Source: Fimbriimonadales bacterium (GTDB taxonomy: Bacteria; Armatimonadota; Fimbriimonadia; Fimbriimonadales; GBS-DC). From it: a DNA stretch of 64,000 nucleotides. The position numbers and the translations under genes are program-made. Position 1 is the stretch's first letter; every line of letters starts with the position of its first letter. The notes under the pieces are model-generated. The model saw nothing but the letters and a program-made list of their open reading frames with translations, made no database searches and was not told where the DNA came from. Below, piece after piece: positions 1 through 13,568 of the stretch. The DNA is taken from assembly GCA_025061985.1 (NCBI GenBank), contig JANXAW010000005.1, forward strand, positions 1-64,000. The letters run 5' to 3'.

Positions 1-270
1 CGTCTGCGCTTGCACGCCGCGGTACAGGCAGGTAAGTCCATCACGCTCGCCTATGTGCGCACCGTGTGTGACAGCGTACTTGCTGACCACTATCACGCTT
101 GCCTACGCCAGCCGCCATGTGTTTCGCTAGAGAGCTGCGCCGAGTATGCTGTTGTGGAGACGGGCTACGAAGTTGCTGAGAACCGCTTGTTGCTGGAACA
201 GGCTTTGGCGCAACTTTCTGAGCGTGACCGCGTAGCTCTTAGAGGAAATGCCTTTTGGAGTGGAGAGTGA
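1..270 (+). pseudogene. Truncated ECF sigma-70-like factor (5' end outside window; region 4 HTH missing)
   Basis: Translation ITLAYVRTVCDSVLADHYHACLRQPPCVSLE...LLLEQALAQLSERDRVALRG resembles sigma region 2/linker and the start of region 4, but ends before an HTH. Confidence 0.4.
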
Positions 271-273
271 ACC

Positions 274-972
274 ATGAGACGATGCGCCGGCATGAAACTG
301 GCGGAGCTGGTGGTTGTATTAACCATCTTGCTGCTGGTAGCGGCGATTATCACCCCAGTGGTGATATCTGTTCGCAAAGGCTCACTACGCAGCCAGTGCA
401 TGAGCAATCTACGCCAGATAGGGATTGCTACGCAGCTCTATCCGGCTGACTATCAGGCGCTGTACGAAAGCATGTTTCAACTCGCGGCATACCTCGACCT
501 GCGCCATCCGAAGGAAAGGGGTATTCTGGCTTGTCCTGCCGGCCGTCTGCAAGTGCCCCTGCGCAAGGCGGTTTCGTCGTACTCGTGGAACACGTCGTTG
601 CTGGGCGTGTCGCGCCAGCGCTTGCAAGAGGAGTCTCCTAATAGGGTGCTGGTGGATTGTGAGCATCATCTGGGCTTGCCCTTGCGTCAAGCGGAAGGCT
701 GGGCGAGCTACGACTATACGGTTGCGCCTTCCTATCCATTTCTGCTGACGCTCCGCTTAGACGGTTTCGTGCAAACGGTTCACGCCTGCCAAGTACGCGC
801 AGTGGAAGTCGGACCCATCGTAGTCGAGGGGCGAACTCTCGAGAAAGTGCTACAGGCGGTTTATCCTGGCGAAACAGAATATGAGAAAGCGACGATACCA
901 TACCCGTTATACGAGTTGTCATCAGCGAACTCCCCGCCCATAGAACTTGGTGGGCAAGCGTTGCGATGTTAG
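274..972 (+). CDS. Prepilin-type N-terminal cleavage/methylation domain protein (pseudopilin-like)
   Basis: MKLAELVVVLTILLLVAAIITPVV hydrophobic prepilin-like N-terminus followed by SQCMSNLRQIGIA, typical of DUF1559/H-X9-DG-like pilins. Confidence 0.65.
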   Translation: MRRCAGMKLAELVVVLTILLLVAAIITPVVISVRKGSLRSQCMSNLRQIGIATQLYPADYQALYESMFQLAAYLDLRHPKERGILACPAGRLQVPLRKAVSSYSWNTSLLGVSRQRLQEESPNRVLVDCEHHLGLPLRQAEGWASYDYTVAPSYPFLLTLRLDGFVQTVHACQVRAVEVGPIVVEGRTLEKVLQAVYPGETEYEKATIPYPLYELSSANSPPIELGGQALRC

Positions 973-1642
973 CAGGAACCAATCCTCTCAAGATGTTCTG
1001 GGCGGATGCTCACGGGTGGACGATTGGCAGCCGCACCTCCAACAGCATCGTCTTGGAGCGCGAGGGAGCACCGATGGGGTTAGGCGGGCAACGCCTTCGC
1101 GTCAAGGTATGGCTGCGAACAGACAAAGGCTACTGCCCATCCCGCGTAGAGATGTAGTATGGCAACGACACGCCTGCGTCCGCTCGGCGCGCCCCTCAAG
1201 CAATCTGGAATGTGTCTGAGTTCACTTTAGTAGAGGGGATGTAGATTCCCAAGTCTGTTTCTTATGAGCTGTACCCCCAGCCCGACATAGATGCTCAGGG
1301 CAGAATCTACTCCCGCTGGGGTCGTTGGATGAAGGCGCATTACCGCCTGGTGCGTGTAGGCAAGTGCAGTGAGCCTCAGCTTGTGCTACCAAACGATGTG
1401 CGTGTAGCAGACTTTCGGTTAGGCAAGACGGATATGGTGATCGGCTATTACAAGAAGGGCATGACGTACAACTGGGGCGATCTTGGGCGACTGGCGACGG
1501 AAGCGGAGCTGAAACAGCTTTCTGCCGAGCAGTATCCCGAACCGCCTCGGACTTCTTGGTGGCGTATTGCTTACTGTACGCGCCGCCAGTGCTCCTGATT
1601 CTGGGAGGCGCGTACTGGCTTTACCGGCTTAGGCGCTCGTGA
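966..1642 (+). pseudogene. Disrupted membrane-anchored protein gene (two in-frame TAG codons plus a 3' frame change)
   Basis: ORFs 966-1157 and 1329-1598 lie in one frame, separated only by TAG at 1155 and a second TAG near 1242. A TM plus basic tail (APPVLLILGGAYWLYRLRRS*) follows in another frame ending near 1642. Confidence 0.5.
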
Positions 1643-1803
1643 CAGACTTAGGCATGGACTTTGAGACAATCGCTTACTCTTTGCGTAGCGTAGGAATGTC
1701 AGCCGCCGCGTTGGGGATGGTTCATCGCGAGCTGCTACTCCGCCCCATAGGGGCACGGGCAGTGGCAGGGTTATTGGGTGTATGGACGCTACTGACCAGT
1801 TAG
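1639..1803 (+). CDS. Small hypothetical protein (54 aa)
   Basis: GTG-initiated ORF VTDLGMDFETIAYSLRSVGMSAAALGMVHRELLLRPIGARAVAGLLGVWTLLTS*, overlapping the upstream TGA. Confidence 0.3.
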   Translation: MTDLGMDFETIAYSLRSVGMSAAALGMVHRELLLRPIGARAVAGLLGVWTLLTS

Positions 1804-1832
1804 TTAATTGCTCGCCTCTTTCCCTGTACGGG

Positions 1833-1838
1833 TATAAT
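1833..1838 (+). promoter_or_regulatory. Candidate -10 box (TATAAT) upstream of etfB
   Basis: TATAAT 25 nt upstream of the etfB ATG, with ggagg-like RBS following. Confidence 0.45.
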
Positions 1839-1863
1839 CTACACAGAAGGAGGCGAGTTATCG

Positions 1864-2613
1864 ATGAAGATACTGGTTTCGGTTAAGCGTGTGCCCGATC
1901 CTTACGCCAAGATTACGCCCAACGCCACGGGCGACGATATCAACCGTGACGGGCTACAGATGGCGGTCAACCCCTTTGATGAAATCGCCTTAGAGGAAGC
2001 GATTCGGCTCAAGGAGGCGGGCAAAGCCACAGAGGTCGTTGCAGTCTCCATCGGCGGAGCAGAATGCCAAGAACAACTGCGTACTGCGCTGGCGATGGGG
2101 GCTGACCGCGCTATCCTCGTGCAAACTGATGCCTCGCTGGACGCCCCAAGCGTCGCCAAAATCTTGGCAGCGGTGTTCCAGCGCGAGCAGCCTCAACTGA
2201 TGCTGATGGGCAAACAAGCCATCGATATGGACGAGAACCAAGTCGGGCAGATGTTGGCAGCACGATTGAACCTCCCTCAAGCCACCTTCGCCTCGAAAAT
2301 CAGCATCGAGAACGGCTGCGCTGTGGTAGAGCGTGAGACGGATAACGGTATTGAGGCGATTCGCGTGCCTTTGCCTGCGATTATCACCGCTGATTTGCGC
2401 CTCAATCAGCCGCGCTATGTTGCGCTCACGGGGATTGTGCGGGCGCGCACCAAACCGCTGGAGACCCTCACTCCAGCGCAGTTGGGGGTGCAGCCTCAGG
2501 TGCGCGTGCGCCTCGTGCGAGTAGAAGCGCCCCCGCCACGCAAGGCAGGCAAGCGCGTCAGCGATGTGCAGGAGTTAGTGCGCCTACTGCGCGAGGAGGC
2601 GCGCGTGATCTAA
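1864..2613 (+). CDS. etfB: Electron transfer flavoprotein beta subunit
   Basis: MKILVSVKRVPDP...DGLQMAVNPFDEIALEEAIRLKE; typical EtfB family. Confidence 0.95.
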   Translation: MKILVSVKRVPDPYAKITPNATGDDINRDGLQMAVNPFDEIALEEAIRLKEAGKATEVVAVSIGGAECQEQLRTALAMGADRAILVQTDASLDAPSVAKILAAVFQREQPQLMLMGKQAIDMDENQVGQMLAARLNLPQATFASKISIENGCAVVERETDNGIEAIRVPLPAIITADLRLNQPRYVALTGIVRARTKPLETLTPAQLGVQPQVRVRLVRVEAPPPRKAGKRVSDVQELVRLLREEARVI

Positions 2614-2629
2614 CGAGGAGGTGTCAGCG

Positions 2630-3595
2630 ATGAAAGTCTTAGTAGTCGCAGAAACCAACGGCGAGCGCGTATTGGAAAAGACGCTGCCTGCGATTGCCTT
2701 TGCGCAGCAAAAAGCGTCTGATGGTTTCACCATCTTGGCGATAGGGAACGACCTCCAAGGCGCAGAGGCGCTGGCAGGCTATGGGGCGCAGGTGGTGCTA
2801 GCCGTTAATCACCCTGCGCTGGCGAAGCCCTTAGCCGAGCGCTATGCGCCTGTGATCGCGCATTATGCGCAGCAGCTGGGTGTGGACGCAGTAGTGGCAA
2901 CCACCAGCACCTTCAGCCGCGATGTATTAGCGCGCGTTGCAGGTATGCTGGACGCGCCGATGCTGAGCGACATCATCACGCTAGAGCGCACCAACGGCAA
3001 ACTGGTTGCCAAGCGCCCGATTTACTCGGCAAATCTTATCGGCACTTTTGAGGTAGAGGGCACGCCCGTGGTGATTACTGTGCGTGGACCTGCATGGGGC
3101 AAGCCCGAGCCGAAGGACAACACCTCACCAGTTCAGGCTGCGGAAGCACCAGCGGATATCCCCACGCGGTCGGAGTGGCTAAGCCTGCGAAGCAGCGGCG
3201 GCGGGCGACCTGACCTCACTCAAGCGCGCGTCGTAGTTTCTGGTGGACGCCCGCTCAAAGACCCTGAAACTTTCGAGCGATACATCGGCGGGCTAGCGGA
3301 TGTGCTGGGCGGAGCTGCCGGCGCTACTCGTGCCGCCGTCGACGCAGGAATCGCCCCCAACGAACTACAAGTCGGGCAAACGGGCAAAACAGTTGCGCCT
3401 GAACTCTACATCGCCGTGGGGATCTCTGGCTCGGTGCAGCACCTCGCAGGAATGAAAGACTCCAAAGTCATCGTGGCGATCAACATCGACCCCGAGGCGC
3501 CTATCTTCCAAGTCGCCGACTACGGACTAGTAGCAGACCTTTATCAGGCGGTGCCTGAGCTAATCGAGTTGCTCAAAAACAACAAAGGTGCGTAG
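2630..3595 (+). CDS. etfA: Electron transfer flavoprotein alpha subunit
   Basis: C-terminal [46 protein letters not shown] is an EtfA FAD-domain signature. ATG at 2630 follows gaggaggtg; the ORF track starts at GTG 2621. Confidence 0.95.
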
Positions 3596-3604
3596 TAGCA
3601 GAAC

Positions 3605-3631
3605 GCAAGGCGAGCGTTAAGCTCGCCTTGC
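3605..3631. terminator. Perfect 11-bp stem hairpin between convergent genes
   Basis: GCAAGGCGAGC-GTTAA-GCTCGCCTTGC between etfA (+) and the LuxR-type gene (-); no clear U tract. Confidence 0.6.
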
Positions 3632-3658
3632 GCGACTACAAGTGGCGATCCGCGAGGG

Positions 3659-3919
3659 TCAGTCTGCATTCTCCTTGAGGAAGACTTCAAGCGGGATCAG
3701 TCCCAGCTGTGCCGCCCGTCGGAACGCCTTCACGCGGTTGTTCACATTTAGCTTTTCGTAGATGTTTGCCAGGTGGAAGTCCACCGTGCGCTTGCTGACA
3801 AACAGCGCGTCGGCAACTTCCTGGGAAGAGCGCCCTTGCGCAATCAGGCTCAGCACCTCAATTTCGCGCTTGGTTAGTCGAACGGGCTTATCTCGGTTTT
3901 GCCACTTCCCTTGGCTCAT
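3659..3919 (-). CDS. LuxR-type HTH DNA-binding protein
   Basis: LTKREIEVLSLIAQGRSSQEVADALFVSKRTVDFHLANIYEKLNVNNRVKA is a GerE/LuxR HTH; no receiver domain. Confidence 0.85.
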   Translation of the reverse strand: MSQGKWQNRDKPVRLTKREIEVLSLIAQGRSSQEVADALFVSKRTVDFHLANIYEKLNVNNRVKAFRRAAQLGLIPLEVFLKENAD

Positions 3920-4043
3920 GCTCGGTCACCTCGTTCCCTGAGATTTCGCCGCCCGCAAGGGGTGTATTCCATATCCCTGCCAAAAATTCACAGCCTCGCT
4001 GGGATAGCAGGGAGGCAATTAGCTGCAGCGAACTCCATCTACG

Positions 4044-5165
4044 ATGCATCCTGTAGACCTCCGCCAGGTTGAACGCCTGCTCATCCTCAAGGTTTCCTCT
4101 ATGGGCGACATTGTGCACGCCTCGCCCGTAGCTGCTGCGCTCAAGCGTGCCTTTCCACACCTGAAACTCGGCTGGATTGCAGAAGATAGGCACGCTGGGG
4201 TGATTGAAGGTTCCCCACGCATTGACCGCTTGCATGTCATTCCGCACCAGGTGTTGCGCGAAAAGCCGTTTGGGCGCAAGGCGTGGCAGGCGGTACTGCA
4301 GCTAAGTCGTGAGCTACGAGCAGAGCGCTACCAAGTGGCGTTAGACCTGCAAGGCTTGCTCAAAAGTGCGATTTGGGGCGTGTTAGGAGGCGTGCCCATC
4401 CGCTACGGCGCACACCGAATGCGCGAGCTAACACCCCTGCTGCTGCGTCGCATTCCCGTGCCTGATGACCCCAACCGCCACGTGGTTCAGCAGTACCTAG
4501 ATGCCGCGCGTTGGCTAGGCGCTCCGGGCGAGTTCCCCGACCTCTATGCCACTCCAGAAGACGCTTTCGCCCCCGAGCCACCTGTGGAGTTCCCGCTTTT
4601 TGTGCCTGAAGTCGCGCACCAACAGGCGCTCCTCAAATTGGCGCAGTTGGGCGCAGATGGCGTGCCCTTCGTAAGCATCAACCCGTCGGCGGGGCGCGAG
4701 TGGAAGCGTTGGCATATCGCGAAGTTCGCCGAGCTTTCCGACCGTATTGAAGCGGAATGGGGAGTACCAGTAGTGTTTGTTGGTGGCGCAGGTGATAAGC
4801 CGCTAGAAGAGCAACTACGCACACTCAAAACGCGCCCCTTACGGAGCTTGATTGGGCGCACTTCGCTCAAAGAGGCGATGGCAATCGTGTGTCGCTCCGC
4901 GGTTCACATCTCTGGCGACACAGGCACAGCGCATATTGCTGCCGCCTTTCGCGTGCCCGTGGTAGCGCTTTATGGTCCTACGCGCCCTGAGCGCACAGGT
5001 CCGTATGGGCAGCGGGAGCGCGTGCTAGACAGACGCCCGCTTTGCACAGCTTGCCCGCCTGACCGCTGCCTGCGCAAGGAATGCTTGCAGTGGATTACGG
5101 TAGACGAGGTGTTGGAGAAAGCGCATCCACTGATAGAAGCAGCGCAGGTTGGACGCAATCCCTGA
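4044..5165 (+). CDS. Glycosyltransferase family 9 (heptosyltransferase-like)
   Basis: LILKVSSMGDIVHASPVAAALKRAFPHLKLGWI...SGDTGTAHIAAAFRVPVVALYGPTRPERTGPYG. Confidence 0.85.
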   Translation: MHPVDLRQVERLLILKVSSMGDIVHASPVAAALKRAFPHLKLGWIAEDRHAGVIEGSPRIDRLHVIPHQVLREKPFGRKAWQAVLQLSRELRAERYQVALDLQGLLKSAIWGVLGGVPIRYGAHRMRELTPLLLRRIPVPDDPNRHVVQQYLDAARWLGAPGEFPDLYATPEDAFAPEPPVEFPLFVPEVAHQQALLKLAQLGADGVPFVSINPSAGREWKRWHIAKFAELSDRIEAEWGVPVVFVGGAGDKPLEEQLRTLKTRPLRSLIGRTSLKEAMAIVCRSAVHISGDTGTAHIAAAFRVPVVALYGPTRPERTGPYGQRERVLDRRPLCTACPPDRCLRKECLQWITVDEVLEKAHPLIEAAQVGRNP

Positions 5166-5206
5166 AACTTTTTTCCGCTTCGAAACGTATAGATAAGTGC
5201 CGTGCG

Positions 5207-5238
5207 AAAAAAAAATGCCGGGGCTTTTCAGCCCCGGC
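5207..5238 (-). terminator. Intrinsic terminator of groESL
   Basis: Minus strand reads GCCGGGGC-TGAAAA-GCCCCGGC followed by a T-rich run (A9 on + at 5207-5215). Confidence 0.9.
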
Positions 5239-5264
5239 CATTGGGGGGTGAGTGGTCTGTGTGG

Positions 5265-6875
5265 TCAGTAGGGGGATGGTGAAGTCTTCTTGCCCTCCTT
5301 CTCCTCAGGGACCTCCGCCACGAGCGCCTCAGTGGTCAGCAGCATTGAAGCGATTGAAGCGGCGTTCTCCAGTGCCGTGCGAGTTACCTTCGCGGGGTCA
5401 ATGATGCCCGCTTTGACCATGTCCACGAACTCGCCTGTGACGGCGTCGTAGCCGTGTCCCTGAGGCAGCTCCTTGACCTTTTCCACGATCACAGAGCCTT
5501 CCACGCCCGCGTTGTTAGCGATCTGGCGCAGTGGCTCTTCCAAGGCACGGCGCACAATGTGCACGCCGATCTTCTCGTCGCCTTCCACTTGGAGGGCGTC
5601 CAAAGCTTTAATGGCATTCACCAAGGTGACGCCACCGCCTGGCACAATCCCCTCCTCAAGGGCAGCCTTGGTAGCGTTGATGGCGTCCTCAAAGCGCGAC
5701 TTCTTCTCCTTCAACTCAGTTTCGGTAGCGGCGCCGACCTTGATCACCGCTACGCCGCCCGCGAGCTTCGCCAGTCGCTCCTGCAACTTCTCGCGGTCGT
5801 AGTCAGACTCCGTGGTTTCGATTTGCTTGCGGATTTGCTGGATGCGCCCTTGAATGGCTTCGGGCTTGCCCTTGCCGCCGATGATGGTGGTGTGCTCTTT
5901 CTCGATGACCACCTTTTCGGCGCGTCCAAGCTGCTCAAGGCGCACGTTCTCCAGCTTGATGCCCAAGTCCTCTGTGATGAAGGTGCCCCCAGTGAGGATG
6001 GCGATGTCCTCCATCATCGCCTTGCGGCGCTCACCGAAGCCGGGTGCTTTGACAGCGGCGCACTGCAGCACGCCGCGCAGCTTGTTCACCACCAGCGTCG
6101 CTAGCGCCTCACCTTCCACATCCTCAGCGATCACCAGCAGCGGCTTGCCCGCGCGAACCACCTGCTCCAAGACGGGGATAAGGTCTTGAGCTGCGCTGAT
6201 CTTCTTCTCGTAGAGCAGGATGTATGGCTCCTCCAGCACGGCTTCCATCCGCTCGGGGTCGGTGATGAAGTAGGGCGAGATGTAGCCACGGTCAAAGCGC
6301 ATCCCTTCCACAACCTCGAGCGTGGTCTCCGTGCCCTTGGACTCTTCCACGGTGATGACGCCGTCCTTCGTGACCTTCTCGATGGCGTCGGCGATCACCT
6401 TGCCAATGTTGGGGTCGTTTGCAGAGATTGTGGCGACCTGCTCAATCGCCGCGCGCCCCTCCACAGGGATGGCAGTCTCCTTGATGAACTTCACGACGGC
6501 CTCTACGGCGCGGTCAATTCCGCGCTTGACAAACATCGGGTTTGCGCCCGCGGCGACTGCCTTCAGCCCCTCCTTGAAAATGGCTTGCGCCAGCACCGTG
6601 GCTGTGGTTGTGCCGTCGCCTGCAACGTCGTTGGTCTTGGAGGCTACTTCGCGCACCAGCTGCGCGCCCATATTTTCAAAGCGGTCTTCTAGCTCGATCT
6701 CCTTAGCAATCGTTACGCCGTCGTTGATGACCGTCGGAGAGCCGAACTTTTTCTCAAGCACTACATTTCGACCACGCGGTCCAAGTGTGACTTTTACAGC
6801 GTTTGCGATTGTATCTACACCCCGCTCCAGTGCGTGTCGAGCTTGCTCATTGTACAGAATTTCTTTCGCTGCCAT
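5265..6875 (-). CDS. groEL: 60-kDa chaperonin GroEL
   Basis: [64 protein letters not shown]... Confidence 0.98.
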
Positions 6876-7269: not shown

Positions 7270-7299
7270 TTTATACCCGTTGTCATGCGTGCTTGTCAA
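7270..7299 (-). promoter_or_regulatory. Sigma-A-type promoter for groESL
   Basis: Minus strand TTGACA - 18 bp - TATAAA, located immediately upstream of CIRCE. Confidence 0.75.
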
Positions 7300-7340
7300 T
7301 AGTGTACAGGTGTCTACGCGCTGCTTGGGGAAGTCCCTCG

Positions 7341-7802
7341 TCAAGGCAAAACGCGGTGTAGCCATGCGCGCAGTTGGGCGGCTTGCGTGCCGATACCCCC
7401 TGAGGTGCGCTTTAGCAGAATGGAGTGCGGAAGCCACTGCTCGACAGGCGTCAGAGCTCTTAGGTAAACGCTTCCCATCGCCAGTAGCACCTCTTGGTAA
7501 TCAACCGTTTGGGCGCGCTTCTGAAGTGTTGCAATCAATTTAGGTGCTAACTCGTCCGCACGTTTCGGGGTCATCTTTCTATCGTAGTATGGGATTAGTG
7601 TCTGCGCTTCGATAAGCCCAAACTCCGCCGAGAGAATAAGGATGTCAAGAATGCGCCTCTCCGAAGCTGGAGCGTGCTGCCACCAGCGGCGAAGAACGCG
7701 GTAGAAAATCCCATCGTAACGTTCGATGGCGGGAAGAAGTTCTGCATCCTTGCGCTTGCGCGCAGAGCAAGCGAGCACGAGTAGTCGCTTAGTTTCGCTC
7801 AC
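7341..7802 (-). CDS. YaaA/DUF6884-like small protein, last gene of the nurA-herA-TGT-like operon
   Basis: GTG at 7802 overlaps the upstream TGA (GTGA). Translation MSETKRLLVLACSARKRKDAELLPAIERYDGIFYRVLRRWW...LILSAEFGLIEAQTLIPYYDRKMTPKRA has the 'CS..K.....PA..RYDG...' pattern. Family call by eye. Confidence 0.55.
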   Translation of the reverse strand: MSETKRLLVLACSARKRKDAELLPAIERYDGIFYRVLRRWWQHAPASERRILDILILSAEFGLIEAQTLIPYYDRKMTPKRADELAPKLIATLQKRAQTVDYQEVLLAMGSVYLRALTPVEQWLPHSILLKRTSGGIGTQAAQLRAWLHRVLP

Positions 7803-8947
7803 TTTAGCACCTCCTTGAGGGCAGCGTAGTAGCGGGTGCCGCACAAACGCCGCTGGAGGAACGCCTCTAAGCAGTCGGCGTGGATCGCTGCGCGCGTTGC
7901 CCTAGCTTCGTAGGCGTAAACCCACAAGTTATGGCAAGCACGCCAGTGGACATGGGCATTACCTTGGGGGTCAATCAGCATCTCCGCGTAGGCACGACAC
8001 GCTGACATAGAATCGAGAGGAAACGCTTCTCCTGTATCCCAGTGGCGCACTCCGAAGCCTTCTTCGTTGACCAGTCGCCATAGGTGATTTACAAATCCCT
8101 CCAACGCTCGATTGAATGCTTCTGGAGTGGGGTATTCACGCGGAGCTGCGCGCCACACGTACCGCCCCGGCAGTTGCGCCAACTTTAGCCCTGCGCTCAC
8201 AATCCACGACTGTGAGTCCACCGAGTCTGCGCCTGCTGCGAAGGCAAGCAGCATATTCAGCGCGGACCCCATCGAGAAGCAGTGTAGATGGATATCTGCA
8301 GGTAGCAAGCGACGCACGGTGCTAATTACACGCACTGCATGCCGCCCACCGCCTCGCCGTGCTAGTGGCGCGAGGCTTCCCACACCGATACATTGCAGCT
8401 GAACCTTGTATCGCTCGGCAAGGCGGAGAATCGAGGCTACGCAGTACTGGAGTTCTTCCTCAGTAGCCCCGTGAACAACAGGCATTAGGGATACCGTCGG
8501 CGCAATCTCTTTGCAGTAGGCAAAGGCACGTTCAGTGTTCGCTAGCGTGCGCTGGATGCGCTCGGCGCGATCAGGAGCCTCAGGTAAAAAGGGATGGTCT
8601 AAGACAACCGCTACATCTGCCCCGGAAGCCCATTGGATATGCAACACTGCTTCGGGCGTGATGTCTATTCGCGCCTTGCGAATGAAATAGTAGGCTCCAG
8701 AGTCCACCATCACAGGGCGCGCGCCGCTTCGCAGGTGGGCTTGCAAGTTCCATCCCGCCTCCAGCAGGCGCCGAAACTTAGGGCGCGTGAAGTCATAGGC
8801 GTTGATGAGCAGCGCTTCTACGCCTGTAATGTCCCATGGGAAAAAGCGTAGCCCTGCGCCTGTCACATCACCAAGGCGGTAGCTGGCAAACAGCAGCGGC
8901 GGGTGCAAGCGATAAGTCCCAAACTGCGTTTCACGAGGTTGGCGCAT
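7799..8947 (-). CDS. tRNA-guanine transglycosylase paralog (DpdA/TGT-like), candidate nucleic-acid 7-deazapurine transglycosylase
   Basis: MVDSGAYYF (TGT DSGG-like), CIGVGSLAPL...LLPADIHLHCFSMGSALNMLLAFAAGADSVDSQSW (TGT GGVSVGE...LMGVG...G.D.FDC-like) and ACHNLWVYAYEARATRAAI (TGT HNLxFY-like). No CxCxxC Zn cluster seen. Likely start 8947, overlapping the herA stop. Confidence 0.6.
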   Translation of the reverse strand: MRQPRETQFGTYRLHPPLLFASYRLGDVTGAGLRFFPWDITGVEALLINAYDFTRPKFRRLLEAGWNLQAHLRSGARPVMVDSGAYYFIRKARIDITPEAVLHIQWASGADVAVVLDHPFLPEAPDRAERIQRTLANTERAFAYCKEIAPTVSLMPVVHGATEEELQYCVASILRLAERYKVQLQCIGVGSLAPLARRGGGRHAVRVISTVRRLLPADIHLHCFSMGSALNMLLAFAAGADSVDSQSWIVSAGLKLAQLPGRYVWRAAPREYPTPEAFNRALEGFVNHLWRLVNEEGFGVRHWDTGEAFPLDSMSACRAYAEMLIDPQGNAHVHWRACHNLWVYAYEARATRAAIHADCLEAFLQRRLCGTRYYAALKEVLK

Positions 8948-10727
8948 GCTGGGCACTCCGTTGCCGATACTTTTGCTCCAGTTCATCCAAGAACTGTTTG
9001 ATACGCTGGTTAGCATCTTCGCAGTGGATAGGGATGGGTACTGCCTCCATCCCTACCGCGTCGTAGCTCATCAGTAACCAATCGCCTTTTTGGAACTTGA
9101 AGGTTTGGCGGAACATCTCTTCCGAAATCCCGAACGCCTCAGCAACAGCCTCGCGGTCGGATTTGCGAGGCATTTTGCTCACAAAGTAAGTGTGTGGCTG
9201 CGCCATAATGCTGGTGTCGAGGTAGCGCACGCGCTGGGTAGCGATCCCCAAACATAGCCCAAACTTCCGTCCACGCCGCGCCAGCGTCATTGCAATCGCG
9301 CGCGATTCGGCATAGCTTCCCTCTGCCTTCTGCGGGATAAACTCGTCCGCCTCGTCCATCAAGAACAACACTAATGGCTCAATGCGCCCTGACCAGCGAC
9401 GGCGCTCGAACATCTTTTCGCCAATCCGCGCCGCAACGCGACGCAGCAAATCGGGGTCACTAGACTGGAACACATACAGCGACGACTTCTCCTGGCTATC
9501 CAGATCGCTCAGCAGCGCCTGCTCAGAGAGAATGAACTGGGGCTGCAGTGAGCGACTCAGGATAGCGGACTTTGCGTATTCCTGAAGTGACTCTTTCCAT
9601 TCGCGCACCGCCTCACGCGCCGCAGTAGTGGAAAGTAGGTCGACGTTTTGGTTATTTCGCTGAATCTGAGCACTCTCTAAGTTGTCAATCTGCGCGATCG
9701 CCCGTTGGAAGGTTTCCTGCGTAAGTGGCTGCCCATTGAACGCTCCGCAAATCGCCTCTACTCGCCTCCGAATCTCCGATTCATTTGCTCCCAGCCCCCC
9801 GCGGGGCTGCCACAGGGAGCGTAGCAGCTTGCCGAGATCGCCTACCTCTTCCTTCCATACTTTGAGGCGTGGCGATTGGTATTTGAGAGCCTCGTGCCAA
9901 AAGTAGTCGAATTTGGCACGGTACGCAGCGAGCGCTTTGGGGTATAGGGTCGTGCGTACGAGGGCACGCCTTGCCTCGCGCCTCAAGCCCTGCAGGTTCC
10001 CATCTGTCGGTTGGGCCTCCATGTAGGTCAGTACGGCTCCAGGTAGCGTCTCTTCCGTAAGTGCGACAATGCAAGCGTTGGAAAGTTCAAGCAGACAGTC
10101 AGACAACAGGGTGGCGTATTCGCTCATCAGGTCAAACACGAGTATCTTGACCACAGAGCGTTGCCTTTCAGCAGTGCAGCTTCTGTACGCCTGCAGGATC
10201 TTGTAAATCAGTGTGCTAATCAGGTTGGACTTCCCCGCGCCAGTAAAACCGAAAATCGCGAAATGGGTGCGCAGCATTTCTTCGGGTACGAGCTCCACGC
10301 GAACCTGTGAGTCGCGTGTCAGGTGTCCCACCTCGAAGCGGGGCTGGTGATGGCGAATGCCGTAGTTTAGTACAGCAGTTGTGGAAGCGGTGTCCAGCAC
10401 ATACACGCGTGCCCCTACCATCGGCAAGTTGCTTTCTACATCCAGCGAAGTACCATTACTGTTTTGGCGTATCTCTTGGTTTGTAGGGATAGCGATACAG
10501 CGGATCTTGGTGACCTCTTCCATAGCCTCATGCTCTTGCTCGACCCAGTCGCGGGCAGCGTTGCGCGCTGCTTCCACCACAAAGCCTGGATAGCCCTCAG
10601 GGCGCTCTCCCAGCGCGTAGTGCATCGGTAGCAGCGAAACCACCTCCAGCAGTGAATAGCGCCTTTCGATGGGCGAGCTGGAAAAGTTTTCTACTGCCAG
10701 CAGCGTGCCCTCGCGGATCAGGTTCAT
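8931..10727 (-). CDS. HerA-like (DUF87) hexameric ATPase/translocase
   Basis: Walker A GFTGAGKSNLISTLIYK, Walker B PLVLFLMDEADEF, LARRGRKFGLCLGIATQR motif, N-terminal HAS-barrel-like region. Confidence 0.88.
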   Translation of the reverse strand: MNLIREGTLLAVENFSSSPIERRYSLLEVVSLLPMHYALGERPEGYPGFVVEAARNAARDWVEQEHEAMEEVTKIRCIAIPTNQEIRQNSNGTSLDVESNLPMVGARVYVLDTASTTAVLNYGIRHHQPRFEVGHLTRDSQVRVELVPEEMLRTHFAIFGFTGAGKSNLISTLIYKILQAYRSCTAERQRSVVKILVFDLMSEYATLLSDCLLELSNACIVALTEETLPGAVLTYMEAQPTDGNLQGLRREARRALVRTTLYPKALAAYRAKFDYFWHEALKYQSPRLKVWKEEVGDLGKLLRSLWQPRGGLGANESEIRRRVEAICGAFNGQPLTQETFQRAIAQIDNLESAQIQRNNQNVDLLSTTAAREAVREWKESLQEYAKSAILSRSLQPQFILSEQALLSDLDSQEKSSLYVFQSSDPDLLRRVAARIGEKMFERRRWSGRIEPLVLFLMDEADEFIPQKAEGSYAESRAIAMTLARRGRKFGLCLGIATQRVRYLDTSIMAQPHTYFVSKMPRKSDREAVAEAFGISEEMFRQTFKFQKGDWLLMSYDAVGMEAVPIPIHCEDANQRIKQFLDELEQKYRQRSAQHAPTS

Positions 10728-10730
10728 CGC

Positions 10731-10880
10731 TTAGCGCGTGTAGTCGAACCATATCTCGAACTCGTAGCGCGACTCGGCGCTTTCGCTGATTCGAAGCAAG
10801 GTGCCTTCCAGCCCCCGCTCAAACCCCACGATGAGTTGGTCCGAGCTTCGCCGATTGTTGAGGCTATTCCCCACCATCAT
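10731..10880 (-). CDS. Small ORF (49 aa) between nurA-like and herA-like genes, not in the supplied ORF track
   Basis: MMVGNSLNNRRSSDQLIVGFERGLEGTLLRISESAESRYEFEIWFDYTR*. AGGGAGG RBS overlaps the nurA 3' end, and the stop is 3 nt before the herA ATG. Confidence 0.65.
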   Translation of the reverse strand: MMVGNSLNNRRSSDQLIVGFERGLEGTLLRISESAESRYEFEIWFDYTR

Positions 10881-10889
10881 GAGCCTCCC

Positions 10890-12785
10890 TTATCGTGCTG
10901 AGCTGTTGCGCAGATTGCGCAGCGTACGTGTGAGTGGTTCATTGAAAAAGGGTATAGTGCTACTTTCCAGCATCTCGCGCACCTTCCTGCCGATTGTTTT
11001 TGCGCCCCAGTCGGCTTTGTGCAACGGGTCAGGATAGCCGATTACTTCTGCGAAGTGGTTGCGCGTTAGCACATCAAGCAAATACATCATCAGCCGTTGA
11101 ACGCAGTTATCTGTTCGATTGTCCTTGTACACAATCGGGCGCACCTCGCCGATGTTGGGCGTGGAGATGACAAGACCGTTGAGGATGTGCTGCTTGTCGA
11201 ACCTAGGCAAGGCGAGGCGGTCTACAAACACTACGTGCCCGCAGAGGGGCGTGCGCTTTCCGCGCGACAAGAAAAACTGCGCTAGCGAGCGCAGGAACAG
11301 TCGCTCAGGAGAAACAATCTCGCCCGCACGTGCGCGGGTTCCCATAATCTGCGGGCGACCATTCTCATCCAGTCCGAGCTTGAGGGTCATGAACACCGAG
11401 TCGAACTCAATTGTGCTCCACGGTGCTGTAAGGCTTGCGTCGCAGCATACAGGGACGCTTTCCAAGAACAGCCTGTCTGTCCACGGTAGCGGCTTCACTT
11501 GCAGCGCCTGCAGCTCAGGATAGACGCCGATATGCTTCATCACGCCCAAATAGTTCCGCGTAAGGTAGGCTGACTCAGAGTCCTTAGCGATGCCAACCAG
11601 CAGAATATGCTTCTCCCAGCACTTTTCGATAAGAGCGCGCAGCCCGACCGCCGTGAGGAAGTTCACATCTTCAGGCGACATCCAGCGACGGCGCTTGTAC
11701 TGAGGATAATCAGGATCAGGAGCTTCATAGGTTAGCGCGGAGGGATCTTTGTCCGTAAACAGACGCTTGCATATATGCGCGAACAAGCTTATCGTGTACT
11801 CCCACGAGTGGCGCGGGTGGAACCGATTGGGGTCTTCGGTGAGCAGTTTGCCGTCTCGTTCCGTGAAAAGGGGCTGACTGTTGGGCTTGTTTGGATCGGG
11901 GCGCGTGAGATACGCGAGGGCTCGCTCGAAGTCTGTCTCGCTCAACCCTATGCGCTGGCGCAGCTCGTCTTTGGGCATTTCGGCAGTGTTGCGAAGATGG
12001 AACTGCGCAATAATCGCATTATGTCGCCCGAAGCGTTTGGCGGATGGAACCCCAAGTTCCTGATTGATGGGATGAGCAAAGGCAACCTTGATGTCGAAGT
12101 CGTCCAGGGCCCGCCGGTCATACAGGTAGCCTGCAAGCGCTGTGTTCGCCCCGTGTGAAACGGCTGCCATCAACCCGCTAAGCGACATATCCATCATAAT
12201 CAGGCGAGGGTAATCGTGCGTGGTGGCACTGGCAAGCGTGTAAGCGAGGTAGACCTCTGCTAGCTGCATCAGGCTAATGTGGATATTCGAGAGGTTCACT
12301 CGATGGGCATCGCTCACCACGAAAGTCTCTTCCTTGTCGGCATGGTAGACATCCTCGATCGTCGCAAACGGCACGGGCACATAAGCAACTAATGACACGT
12401 CGCGCTCCAGCCCCCAGCGCTCGTACTTGACGCGCGGCGGGTCGTCTTTGAGGAAAATACTGCCACGTGCCCCGTACGCGCCGCCAAAGAACACCACGAA
12501 CTCGCGGAAGGTGTGCTTGGAGCAAGTGCCATCAATCGCCACGAAGTCTATCTTGTCGAGGCGGGTGACATCAAATACTTGCTCTGCCAGCTCCTTGATC
12601 TGCCGACGCTGAGTAGGGTCTTGGAAAAACGGCTCATACTGGACAATCAGTTTGTGGAAGAAGTCGTTGTAGAACGAACAAGCATTCTCAACCCGCTCAT
12701 CGCGGAGCGCGCGCAACTGGCGCTGCGACTCATCCAGCGCTCTGTGGTAGCCAGCGAATATCTTGGATAGCATAGACATAGACAT
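10890..12785 (-). CDS. NurA-domain nuclease
   Basis: FVAIDGTCSKH (NurA DGS-like Asp), LIMMDMSLSGLM (second Asp motif), HILLVGIAKDS, C-terminal RTDNCVQRLMMYLLDVL and YPDPLHKADWGAK; adjacent to herA. Confidence 0.8.
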   Translation of the reverse strand: MSMSMLSKIFAGYHRALDESQRQLRALRDERVENACSFYNDFFHKLIVQYEPFFQDPTQRRQIKELAEQVFDVTRLDKIDFVAIDGTCSKHTFREFVVFFGGAYGARGSIFLKDDPPRVKYERWGLERDVSLVAYVPVPFATIEDVYHADKEETFVVSDAHRVNLSNIHISLMQLAEVYLAYTLASATTHDYPRLIMMDMSLSGLMAAVSHGANTALAGYLYDRRALDDFDIKVAFAHPINQELGVPSAKRFGRHNAIIAQFHLRNTAEMPKDELRQRIGLSETDFERALAYLTRPDPNKPNSQPLFTERDGKLLTEDPNRFHPRHSWEYTISLFAHICKRLFTDKDPSALTYEAPDPDYPQYKRRRWMSPEDVNFLTAVGLRALIEKCWEKHILLVGIAKDSESAYLTRNYLGVMKHIGVYPELQALQVKPLPWTDRLFLESVPVCCDASLTAPWSTIEFDSVFMTLKLGLDENGRPQIMGTRARAGEIVSPERLFLRSLAQFFLSRGKRTPLCGHVVFVDRLALPRFDKQHILNGLVISTPNIGEVRPIVYKDNRTDNCVQRLMMYLLDVLTRNHFAEVIGYPDPLHKADWGAKTIGRKVREMLESSTIPFFNEPLTRTLRNLRNSSAR

Positions 12786-12786
12786 T

Positions 12787-12794
12787 AGTATACC
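12787..12794 (-). promoter_or_regulatory. Candidate -10 (GGTATACT) for the nurA-herA operon
   Basis: Minus-strand GGTATACT directly before ATGTCTATGTCTATG; a leaderless start at the second ATG is plausible. Confidence 0.4.
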
Positions 12795-12830
12795 TTGACT
12801 GCTGGTGAAAGCAAGCGATCGGCTCTGCGT

Positions 12831-13568
12831 CTAACCACCCACTCCGCCTTTGAGGTGGATCGCCGGCGGCTGAATGTACAGCGGCGTGAGGCTGAACGGG
12901 TGCACAGTTTCGCCTTGCTGAAAGCGCAGCCAGCCCACCTGCGCCACGCCTTCGGGCGGGGGCGATTCTACGAAGCGCCAGTGCAGGTTCGGCAAGTACG
13001 GCTCCAGCCACGCGCGAGCGTGTGGGACGCCAACCGCCTGCAGTGTGGAGGCGTCGGGCGTATGCGCTTGTAGCCACGCGCCCAATGCGCTCCGCACCAC
13101 AAACGCATGCTCGCTAAAGGGCGTGGGGAGGGCGTCTGTCGCAGGCAGCATCCACTGCAGGTAAAGCGCATCACGACGGGCAGGCAAGGCAACTAGCGTA
13201 GGGATAGCAGCAGGCATCAGAGCTGCGCACGCCTCAAACGCATTCACGGCGATTAGGGGCTTGCCAAGGGCGTGCGCCCAAGTCTTGGCAATCATCACAC
13301 CGATCTTGAGCGCAGTGAACGCGCCAGGTCCGACATCTACTGCCAGCGCGTCTACCTGCGCCAAACAGAGGGCGTGGCGGGCGAGGAGCCACTCGGTCGC
13401 ATGTAGCAGGTTGCCTGATAGGTTCAGCCCATGCGCTACGCGCACGCTACCGAGCAGCGCGCCCCCGCGCACAACCGCCACGCCACAGACGGTGCTGGTC
13501 GCCTCCAACGCCAGCAGCGTTGCCCCTACTGGCTCAGACGGTGATGGTTTCACCAGGCTTGAGCGCAA
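12831..13568 (-). CDS. tsaB: tRNA threonylcarbamoyladenosine biosynthesis protein TsaB
   Basis: LLALEATSTVCGVAVV...VDALAVDVGPGAFTALKIGVMIAKTWAHALGKPLIAVNAFEA. Confidence 0.9.
   Translation of the reverse strand: MRSSLVKPSPSEPVGATLLALEATSTVCGVAVVRGGALLGSVRVAHGLNLSGNLLHATEWLLARHALCLAQVDALAVDVGPGAFTALKIGVMIAKTWAHALGKPLIAVNAFEACAALMPAAIPTLVALPARRDALYLQWMLPATDALPTPFSEHAFVVRSALGAWLQAHTPDASTLQAVGVPHARAWLEPYLPNLHWRFVESPPPEGVAQVGWLRFQQGETVHPFSLTPLYIQPPAIHLKGGVGG

What the first reader, a model, noticed from the sequence alone, without database searches (positions are those of the whole stretch)
7341..12785. Candidate novel system: NurA-like / small ORF / HerA-like / TGT-paralog / YaaA-DUF6884-like operon
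Seen in sequence: five minus-strand ORFs in tight order. The small ORF fills the nurA-herA gap, the herA stop (8931) overlaps the TGT-like start (8947), and the TGT-like stop overlaps the next start as GTGA. Known background: HerA-NurA is a DNA end-processing translocase/nuclease pair that also occurs in bacterial defence loci. DpdA, a TGT paralog, inserts 7-deazaguanine into DNA in the Dpd system, and I recall DpdC as YaaA/DUF328-like (from memory, to be checked). Inference: this operon may couple 7-deazapurine DNA modification or its recognition to HerA-NurA degradation, as a modification-restriction-like defence or repair system. A link between these families in one five-gene operon is not one I recognise as described.
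Basis: partly seen in the sequence, partly recalled or inferred. Interest (0 to 1): 0.92.

Follow-up and report, generated by a model that had tools for sequence, protein, structure and literature searches.

The report
DpdA-like TGT pair with HerA-NurA
A rare bacterial four-gene island joins a DNA-degrading machine (HerA-NurA) to a guanine-swapping enzyme and a partner like those that put 7-deazaguanine bases into DNA, so it is probably a compact, undescribed variant of a "mark self DNA, destroy unmarked DNA" defence system.

Summary
The operon is real: nurA, herA, a TGT paralogue and a DUF6884 gene, all on the minus strand, mostly overlapping. One detail of the finding is wrong. The "small ORF" is not a fifth gene: it is the N-terminus of HerA, cut off by an in-frame TAA where every relative aligned has Gln (a genuine split or an assembly error). 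The same four-gene order occurs in another Fimbriimonadales genome at 34-48% identity. In two Planctomycetota MAGs the DUF6884-TGT pair sits directly upstream of DISARM drmD instead. The TGT forms its own clade outside canonical Tgt; it keeps both catalytic aspartates and the DpdA-type histidine but lacks the zinc cysteines. DUF6884 is profile-related to DpdC, and in a relative it is fused to a bona fide DpdA. The locus is a 5.55-kb insert between core genes, absent from 12 congeners; one of them carries type I restriction genes at the groES-side site. The genus lacks QueC but has the preQ0 transporter YhhQ. Best reading: a Dpd-like 7-deazaguanine modification pair coupled to HerA-NurA as DNA-degrading engine. 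Whether the TGT acts on DNA, and whether the system marks self or attacks modified DNA, is untested. New variant of a known kind.

The parts
10890..12785 (-). nurA-like nuclease, 631 aa; IDGT motif (D85) and further motif residues (D199, K401-D402, H589) invariant in 10 homologues
   Evidence: 63-66% identity to NurA partners of HerA in genus g92, 47% in G072
10731..10880 (-). 49-aa 'small ORF' = N-terminal part of HerA (start of the HAS domain, by position), not an independent gene; preceded by GGGAGG
   Evidence: aligns in frame with residues 1-32 of full-length HerA homologues
10731..10733 (-). in-frame TAA interrupting herA (Gln codon in the relatives); TAA-GCG-ATG spacing would allow coupled re-initiation at 10727
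8931..10727 (-). herA-like DNA translocase ATPase, 598 aa, Walker A GFTGAGKSN
7799..8947 (-). TGT paralogue, 382 aa; D82 and D244 catalytic Asp, D117, H222 kept; no CxCxxC zinc knuckle, no PUA domain
7341..7802 (-). DUF6884 / YaaA-superfamily protein, 153 aa, C12xxxK16 and LSAxxG motifs; DpdC-like
7300..12850 (.). island: nucleotide similarity to congeners stops at ~7299 (groES side) and ~12850 (tsaB side)

Best explanation
A compact Dpd-like modification-restriction system. Shown: four co-oriented, closely packed genes encode a NurA-like nuclease, its HerA translocase, a TGT paralogue with an intact transglycosylase active site, and a DUF6884 protein related to DpdC; they sit in an accessory insert, and the TGT-DUF6884 pair also occurs directly in front of DISARM genes in another phylum. 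Inferred: the TGT exchanges guanine for a 7-deazaguanine base in DNA (preQ0, or preQ1, imported through YhhQ in this host), and DUF6884 converts or reads that base as DpdC does. HerA-NurA then threads and degrades DNA that lacks the mark. In this genome the herA gene is interrupted, so the effector may be impaired or made in two pieces.
For: Order nurA-herA-TGT-DUF6884 kept in G072 at 47/44/48/34% identity. TGT clade distinct from canonical Tgt (99/98 versus 98/92 support), with both catalytic Asp and the DpdA H196 equivalent. A canonical Tgt is present elsewhere in the genome, so the tRNA job is already filled. DUF6884 fused to a bona fide DpdA in G106 (NF041059 321 bits; PADLOC DpdA 1.9e-89). 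In canonical islands DpdC sits directly upstream of DpdA. DUF6884 versus DpdC: hhalign 94.6%, E 6.6e-8. A haloarchaeal DUF6884 protein hits both DpdC (3.6e-13) and PDC-M57A, near a DpdA (5.2e-53) and a queuosine-precursor transporter. The same TGT-DUF6884 pair stands before DISARM DrmD/DrmMI. Insert between core genes, absent from 12 congeners; type I restriction genes at the same groES-side site in G171. YhhQ in 12 of 13 genomes of the genus. T. kodakarensis HerA-NurA cuts both strands of dsDNA and was proposed to destroy foreign DNA (PMC12977600).
Against: No direct evidence that DNA is the substrate. The DpdA profile score is far below the curated cut-off (23.8 vs 200 bits). No DpdB. No QueC in 12 congeners, so no de novo preQ0. 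The HerA-NurA pair also exists alone, without TGT, in genus g92. In Planctomycetota the pair accompanies DISARM, which already has its own methylase. HerA is interrupted in this genome. The TGT clade is very rare (four genomes found).
Confidence: 0.45

Rival explanations
1. Reverse logic (type IV-like): the system attacks phage DNA that carries 7-deazaguanines. DUF6884 and/or the TGT recognise or remove the foreign base and HerA-NurA degrades the DNA.
For: The host genus cannot make preQ0 (no QueC). DUF6884 member YfjM was found among proteins bound to DNA lesions and is modelled flipping a base (PMC11701544). Many phages carry 7-deaza-G (PMC6884629). In Planctomycetota the pair is added to DISARM, which has its own methylase for self-marking.
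Against: The TGT active site is intact for base insertion. DUF6884 is fused to a modification-type DpdA. YhhQ is present, and G072 and both Planctomycetota hosts do have QueC.
Confidence: 0.2
2. DNA-repair operon: HerA-NurA processes DNA ends, and DUF6884/TGT deal with lesions or damaged guanines.
For: HerA-NurA is a genus-wide stand-alone pair in g92, in places close to mutS. YaaA and YfjM have been linked to oxidative or DNA damage (PMC11701544).
Against: Accessory, insert-like distribution in this genus (0 of 12 congeners). TGT-DUF6884 is exchangeable between HerA-NurA and DISARM.
Confidence: 0.13
3. The TGT acts on RNA (a second tRNA transglycosylase), and the HerA-NurA linkage is incidental or part of an RNA-modifying defence.
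For: Best NCBIfam profile is archaeal tRNA TGT (TIGR00432, 2.2e-22). Structural match to tRNA TGTs. A tree holding this clade together with canonical Tgt was not rejected by an AU test (p 0.32).
Against: Canonical Tgt already present. Zinc site and PUA domain lost. Linkage to DNA-acting defence genes in two phyla.
Confidence: 0.12
4. In this genome the locus is a decaying, non-functional copy of such a system (not exclusive of the others).
For: In-frame TAA near the herA start. Draft genome, 66% complete.
Against: The other three reading frames and all catalytic motifs are intact. TAA-GCG-ATG spacing permits re-initiation. An assembly error is possible.
Confidence: 0.15

Closest known systems
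Dpd (7-deazaguanine in DNA) system, DpdA-DpdC + DpdD-K
   Same: TGT-superfamily enzyme next to a YaaA/DUF6884-superfamily protein, plus ATP-driven DNA-processing genes; a relative in the same order has a DUF6884::DpdA fusion
   Different: TGT is far below the DpdA cut-off and lacks the zinc knuckle; no DpdB; no DpdD-K; effector is HerA-NurA; no preQ0 synthesis (QueC) in the genus
BREX-Related Capture (BRC) systems (PMC12839542)
   Same: HerA/FtsK translocase and TGT in one defence locus
   Different: BRC has PglZ, DUF6079, STAND NTPase and DUF4007, sometimes GNAT, and no DpdC homologue; here there is NurA and DUF6884 and none of those
Stand-alone HerA-NurA pairs (Deinococcus, archaea; genus g92 here)
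   Same: Adjacent HerA and NurA; 63-66% / ~54% identity with g92
   Different: No TGT or DUF6884 genes there
DISARM class 1 (DrmD, DrmMI)
   Same: The same TGT-DUF6884 pair (49-51% identity in the TGT) stands directly upstream of drmD in two Planctomycetota MAGs
   Different: The window has none of the DISARM genes
Type III CRISPR-associated HerA (PADLOC PDLC01055)
   Same: Best HerA profile, 9.5e-91; NurA and HerA also listed as putative CRISPR auxiliary genes (PMC10910872)
   Different: No CRISPR genes in the operon

Membership tests
TGT superfamily (PF01702) | TGT barrel with two catalytic Asp (DSG motif and nucleophile Asp) | tested here: met
   Pfam 2.1e-21; D82 and D244 aligned with P. 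horikoshii arcTGT; AF2 model pTM 0.84 matches TGT structures
Canonical queuosine Tgt | Falls in the Tgt clade; CxCxxC zinc site; FDC at the nucleophile | tested here: not met
   Separate 99/98 clade outside the 98/92 Tgt clade; DSQSW; no cysteine knuckle. The AU test alone does not exclude a joint grouping (p 0.32)
Archaeosine TGT | Full-length equivalog match and C-terminal PUA region | tested here: not met
   TIGR00432 79 bits vs cut-off 350; 382 aa vs 577 aa
DpdA | NF041059 equivalog score | tested here: not met
   23.8 bits vs cut-off 200; not joined to the DpdA branch with firm support
DpdA | Conserved His196 of phage 9g DpdA | tested here: met
   H222 aligns with H196; also present in arcTGT, so not specific
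Dpd system | DpdC next to DpdA | tested here: inconclusive
   DUF6884 adjacent by GTGA overlap; DpdC profile only 3.7e-5; hhalign to DpdC 94.6%
Dpd system | DpdB and restriction genes DpdD-K | tested here: not met
   None in the operon or its immediate flanks
Dpd system | preQ0 source (FolE, QueD, QueE, QueC or transporter) | tested here: inconclusive
   No QueC in G000 or 12 congeners; YhhQ in 12 of 13 genomes; QueF in 3 of 6 congeners tested; FolE, QueD, QueE not searched
Dpd system | dPreQ0 or dADG in genomic DNA | not testable with these tools
   Needs LC-MS
HerA-NurA | HerA ATPase (DUF87) and adjacent NurA-domain nuclease | tested here: met
   HerA 9.5e-91; NurA sub-threshold in the window but 21.8-33.7 bits (cut-off 21) in four homologues; structure model of NurA too poor to use
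BRC system | PglZ, DUF6079/BrxC-like and DUF4007 with HerA | tested here: not met
   Absent from the operon and its immediate flanks by ORF reading and profiles

The most novel reading that the evidence does not exclude
TGT-DUF6884 is a portable two-gene 7-deazaguanine marking cassette that couples to unrelated DNA-destroying engines: HerA-NurA here, DISARM in Planctomycetota, and (through a more distant TGT) DpdK-like PLD/helicase genes in haloarchaea. That would make a minimal Dpd-type restriction system whose effector is the HerA-NurA resection machine and whose base can be scavenged rather than made.
Probability: 0.38. Interest if true: 0.8.

Novelty: new variant of a known kind. Interest (0 to 1): 0.6.

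Why it matters
If right, it shows that 7-deazaguanine DNA marking needs only two genes and can be plugged into different nuclease machines. It would also give HerA-NurA, whose role is disputed between repair and destruction of foreign DNA, a self/non-self signal. The system is small enough to test in a laboratory strain.

Tried and rejected
(1) Small ORF as a fifth component: rejected, it is the HerA N-terminus. (2) AlphaFold of NurA: mean pLDDT 42.8, not used for fold search. (3) PDB profile search with NurA: no match. (4) Relatives in IMG/VR, phage and plasmid collections: none for NurA and none of the close TGT clade in viral contigs or phages; plasmids gave only distant TGTs. (5) 393 Planctomycetota genomes searched for the TGT clade: only the known one. 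(7) Sphingobium and G001 TGT-like proteins looked at and set aside as a different branch. (8) DUF6884 alone as a marker of the system: rejected, it is common on plasmids without TGT. (9) Supplementary data of PMC12839542 could not be opened, so BRC gene lists were not checked one by one; the main structural paper on DpdA (PMC10164549) is not held.

Full report
Observation. The herA stop at 8931 overlaps the TGT start at 8947, and the TGT stop and DUF6884 start share GTGA at 7802-7799. The window is part of a 1.35-Mb, 66%-complete draft genome.

What the proteins are. HerA is firm: DUF87 3.4e-16 and PADLOC HerA (type III-associated) 9.5e-91, with Walker motifs kept. The large upstream protein scores 17.3 bits for NurA, below the cut-off of 21. 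All ten members of the homologue alignment hit NurA, and of those read one by one four pass the cut-off, the best with 33.7 bits. The IDGT and other motif residues are invariant. Its AlphaFold model was too poor to use. The third protein is a TGT (2.1e-21). The fourth is DUF6884 (4.4e-10), with weaker DpdC matches (3.7e-5) and the CxxxK and LSAxxG motifs described for that family (PMC11701544).

The small ORF. Full-length HerA homologues of 611-626 aa begin with about 32 residues that match the 49-aa ORF in frame. The window has TAA at 10733-10731 where the relatives have a Gln codon. It is therefore the start of HerA and not a fifth gene. Either the gene is interrupted, or HerA is made in two pieces by re-initiation at TAA-GCG-ATG, or the assembly carries an error. 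In T. kodakarensis the HAS domain of HerA contacts NurA (PMC12977600), so the loss could matter.

Distribution. The full order nurA-herA-TGT-DUF6884 is kept in G072 at 47, 44, 48 and 34% identity. A scan of 85,462 species genomes with two short peptide patterns found only G072 and two Planctomycetota MAGs; the patterns are strict, so this is a lower bound. In 291 Armatimonadota genomes the close TGT occurs only in G000 and G072, and in 393 Planctomycetota only in the known one. The HerA-NurA pair occurs without the TGT in the genus g92 genomes G178-G187 that were examined, at 63-66% (NurA) and ~54% (HerA), which is closer to the window than G072 is. TGT-DUF6884 was thus either lost there or joined more than once (inference). 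In L030, and as far as the contig reaches in L028, the DUF6884-TGT pair is followed by DISARM drmD (1e-211); in L030 drmMI follows (1291 bits).

Island. Nucleotide similarity to congeners ends at about 7299 beside groES (five genomes, 7278-7299) and about 12850 beside tsaB (G168). None of 12 congeners has the TGT or NurA. In G171 the groES-side position carries type I restriction-modification genes. This fits an accessory defence insertion.

TGT function. Both catalytic aspartates of arcTGT align with D82 and D244; D117 is kept; H222 aligns with H196 of phage 9g DpdA; the zinc cysteines and the PUA domain are missing. The window clade is supported (99/98) outside canonical Tgt (98/92), on the arcTGT/DpdA side of the tree but not firmly with DpdA. 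An AU test for a joint grouping with canonical Tgt was not significant (p 0.32), so the separation rests on the branch supports. The genome has its own canonical Tgt.

DUF6884 as DpdC-like. In G106, a member of the same order, DUF6884 is fused to a protein that passes the DpdA cut-off (321 bits; PADLOC 1.9e-89). In two canonical islands (G030, G059) a DpdC stands directly before DpdA (the G030 one checked by profile). Profiles of DUF6884 and DpdC align with 94.6% probability, E 6.6e-8, on small alignments. A haloarchaeal DUF6884 protein hits DpdC at 3.6e-13 and sits near a DpdA (5.2e-53) and a queuosine-precursor transporter. A published survey also lists DUF6884 for dpdC (PMC11888242).

Substrate supply. 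QueC is missing in G000 and 12 congeners (only short fragment hits), while YhhQ is found in 12 of those 13 genomes, QueA in all six congeners tested, and QueF in three of six. G072 and both Planctomycetota hosts have QueC. In this genus a 7-deazaguanine would have to be imported (inference).

Literature. Searches for HerA + NurA with 7-deazaguanine or with TGT found no description of such a system. The nearest published case is BRC, with HerA, TGT, PglZ and no DpdC (PMC12839542). T. kodakarensis HerA-NurA cuts both strands of dsDNA and was suggested to destroy foreign DNA (PMC12977600). Only an open-access library was searched.

Verdict. A rare, mobile, probably defensive operon that works most likely like a reduced Dpd system with HerA-NurA as effector. 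It is not filed as a Dpd member, because the DpdA score, DpdB and DpdD-K were tested and not met. Chemistry and direction of discrimination remain open.

Noticed in passing
L091 (G106 contig 9) 8981-10681: DUF6884 domain fused to the N-terminus of a bona fide DpdA, with relaxase- and VirD4-looking genes nearby; such a fusion ties DUF6884 to DNA 7-deazaguanine chemistry.
   Followed up: partly
L030 4512-13789 and L028 8236-10811: DUF6884-TGT pair directly upstream of DISARM class 1 genes in Planctomycetota (drmD in both, drmMI seen in L030); drmD in L030 appears split into two ORFs.
   Followed up: partly
L032, L033, L081-L084 (haloarchaeal plasmids): 344-aa TGT followed by a ~300-aa unknown protein and (in L033, L081-L084) a BrxC/D-like ATPase, often next to large DpdA-like proteins, preQ0 synthesis genes or a queuosine-precursor transporter; looks like an archaeal 7-deazaguanine DNA-modification locus that I did not find described.
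   Followed up: partly
L031 (Haladaptatus plasmid) 1-5692: Helicase, DpdK/DrmC-like PLD protein, DUF6884, 352-aa TGT and a HATPase protein in one row: a more distant DUF6884-TGT pair with yet another effector set.
   Followed up: partly
L072 (G065): 486-aa protein with a GNAT-like N-terminus and a TGT domain, as reported for BRC systems.
   Followed up: no
L111 (G171), 1993-3072: Type I restriction methylase genes upstream of groES, at the same site where the window carries the island.
   Followed up: partly
L049, L051 (genus g92): MNT-like nucleotidyltransferase and HEPN-like gene pair just upstream of the stand-alone nurA-herA, with mutS close by in L051.
   Followed up: no
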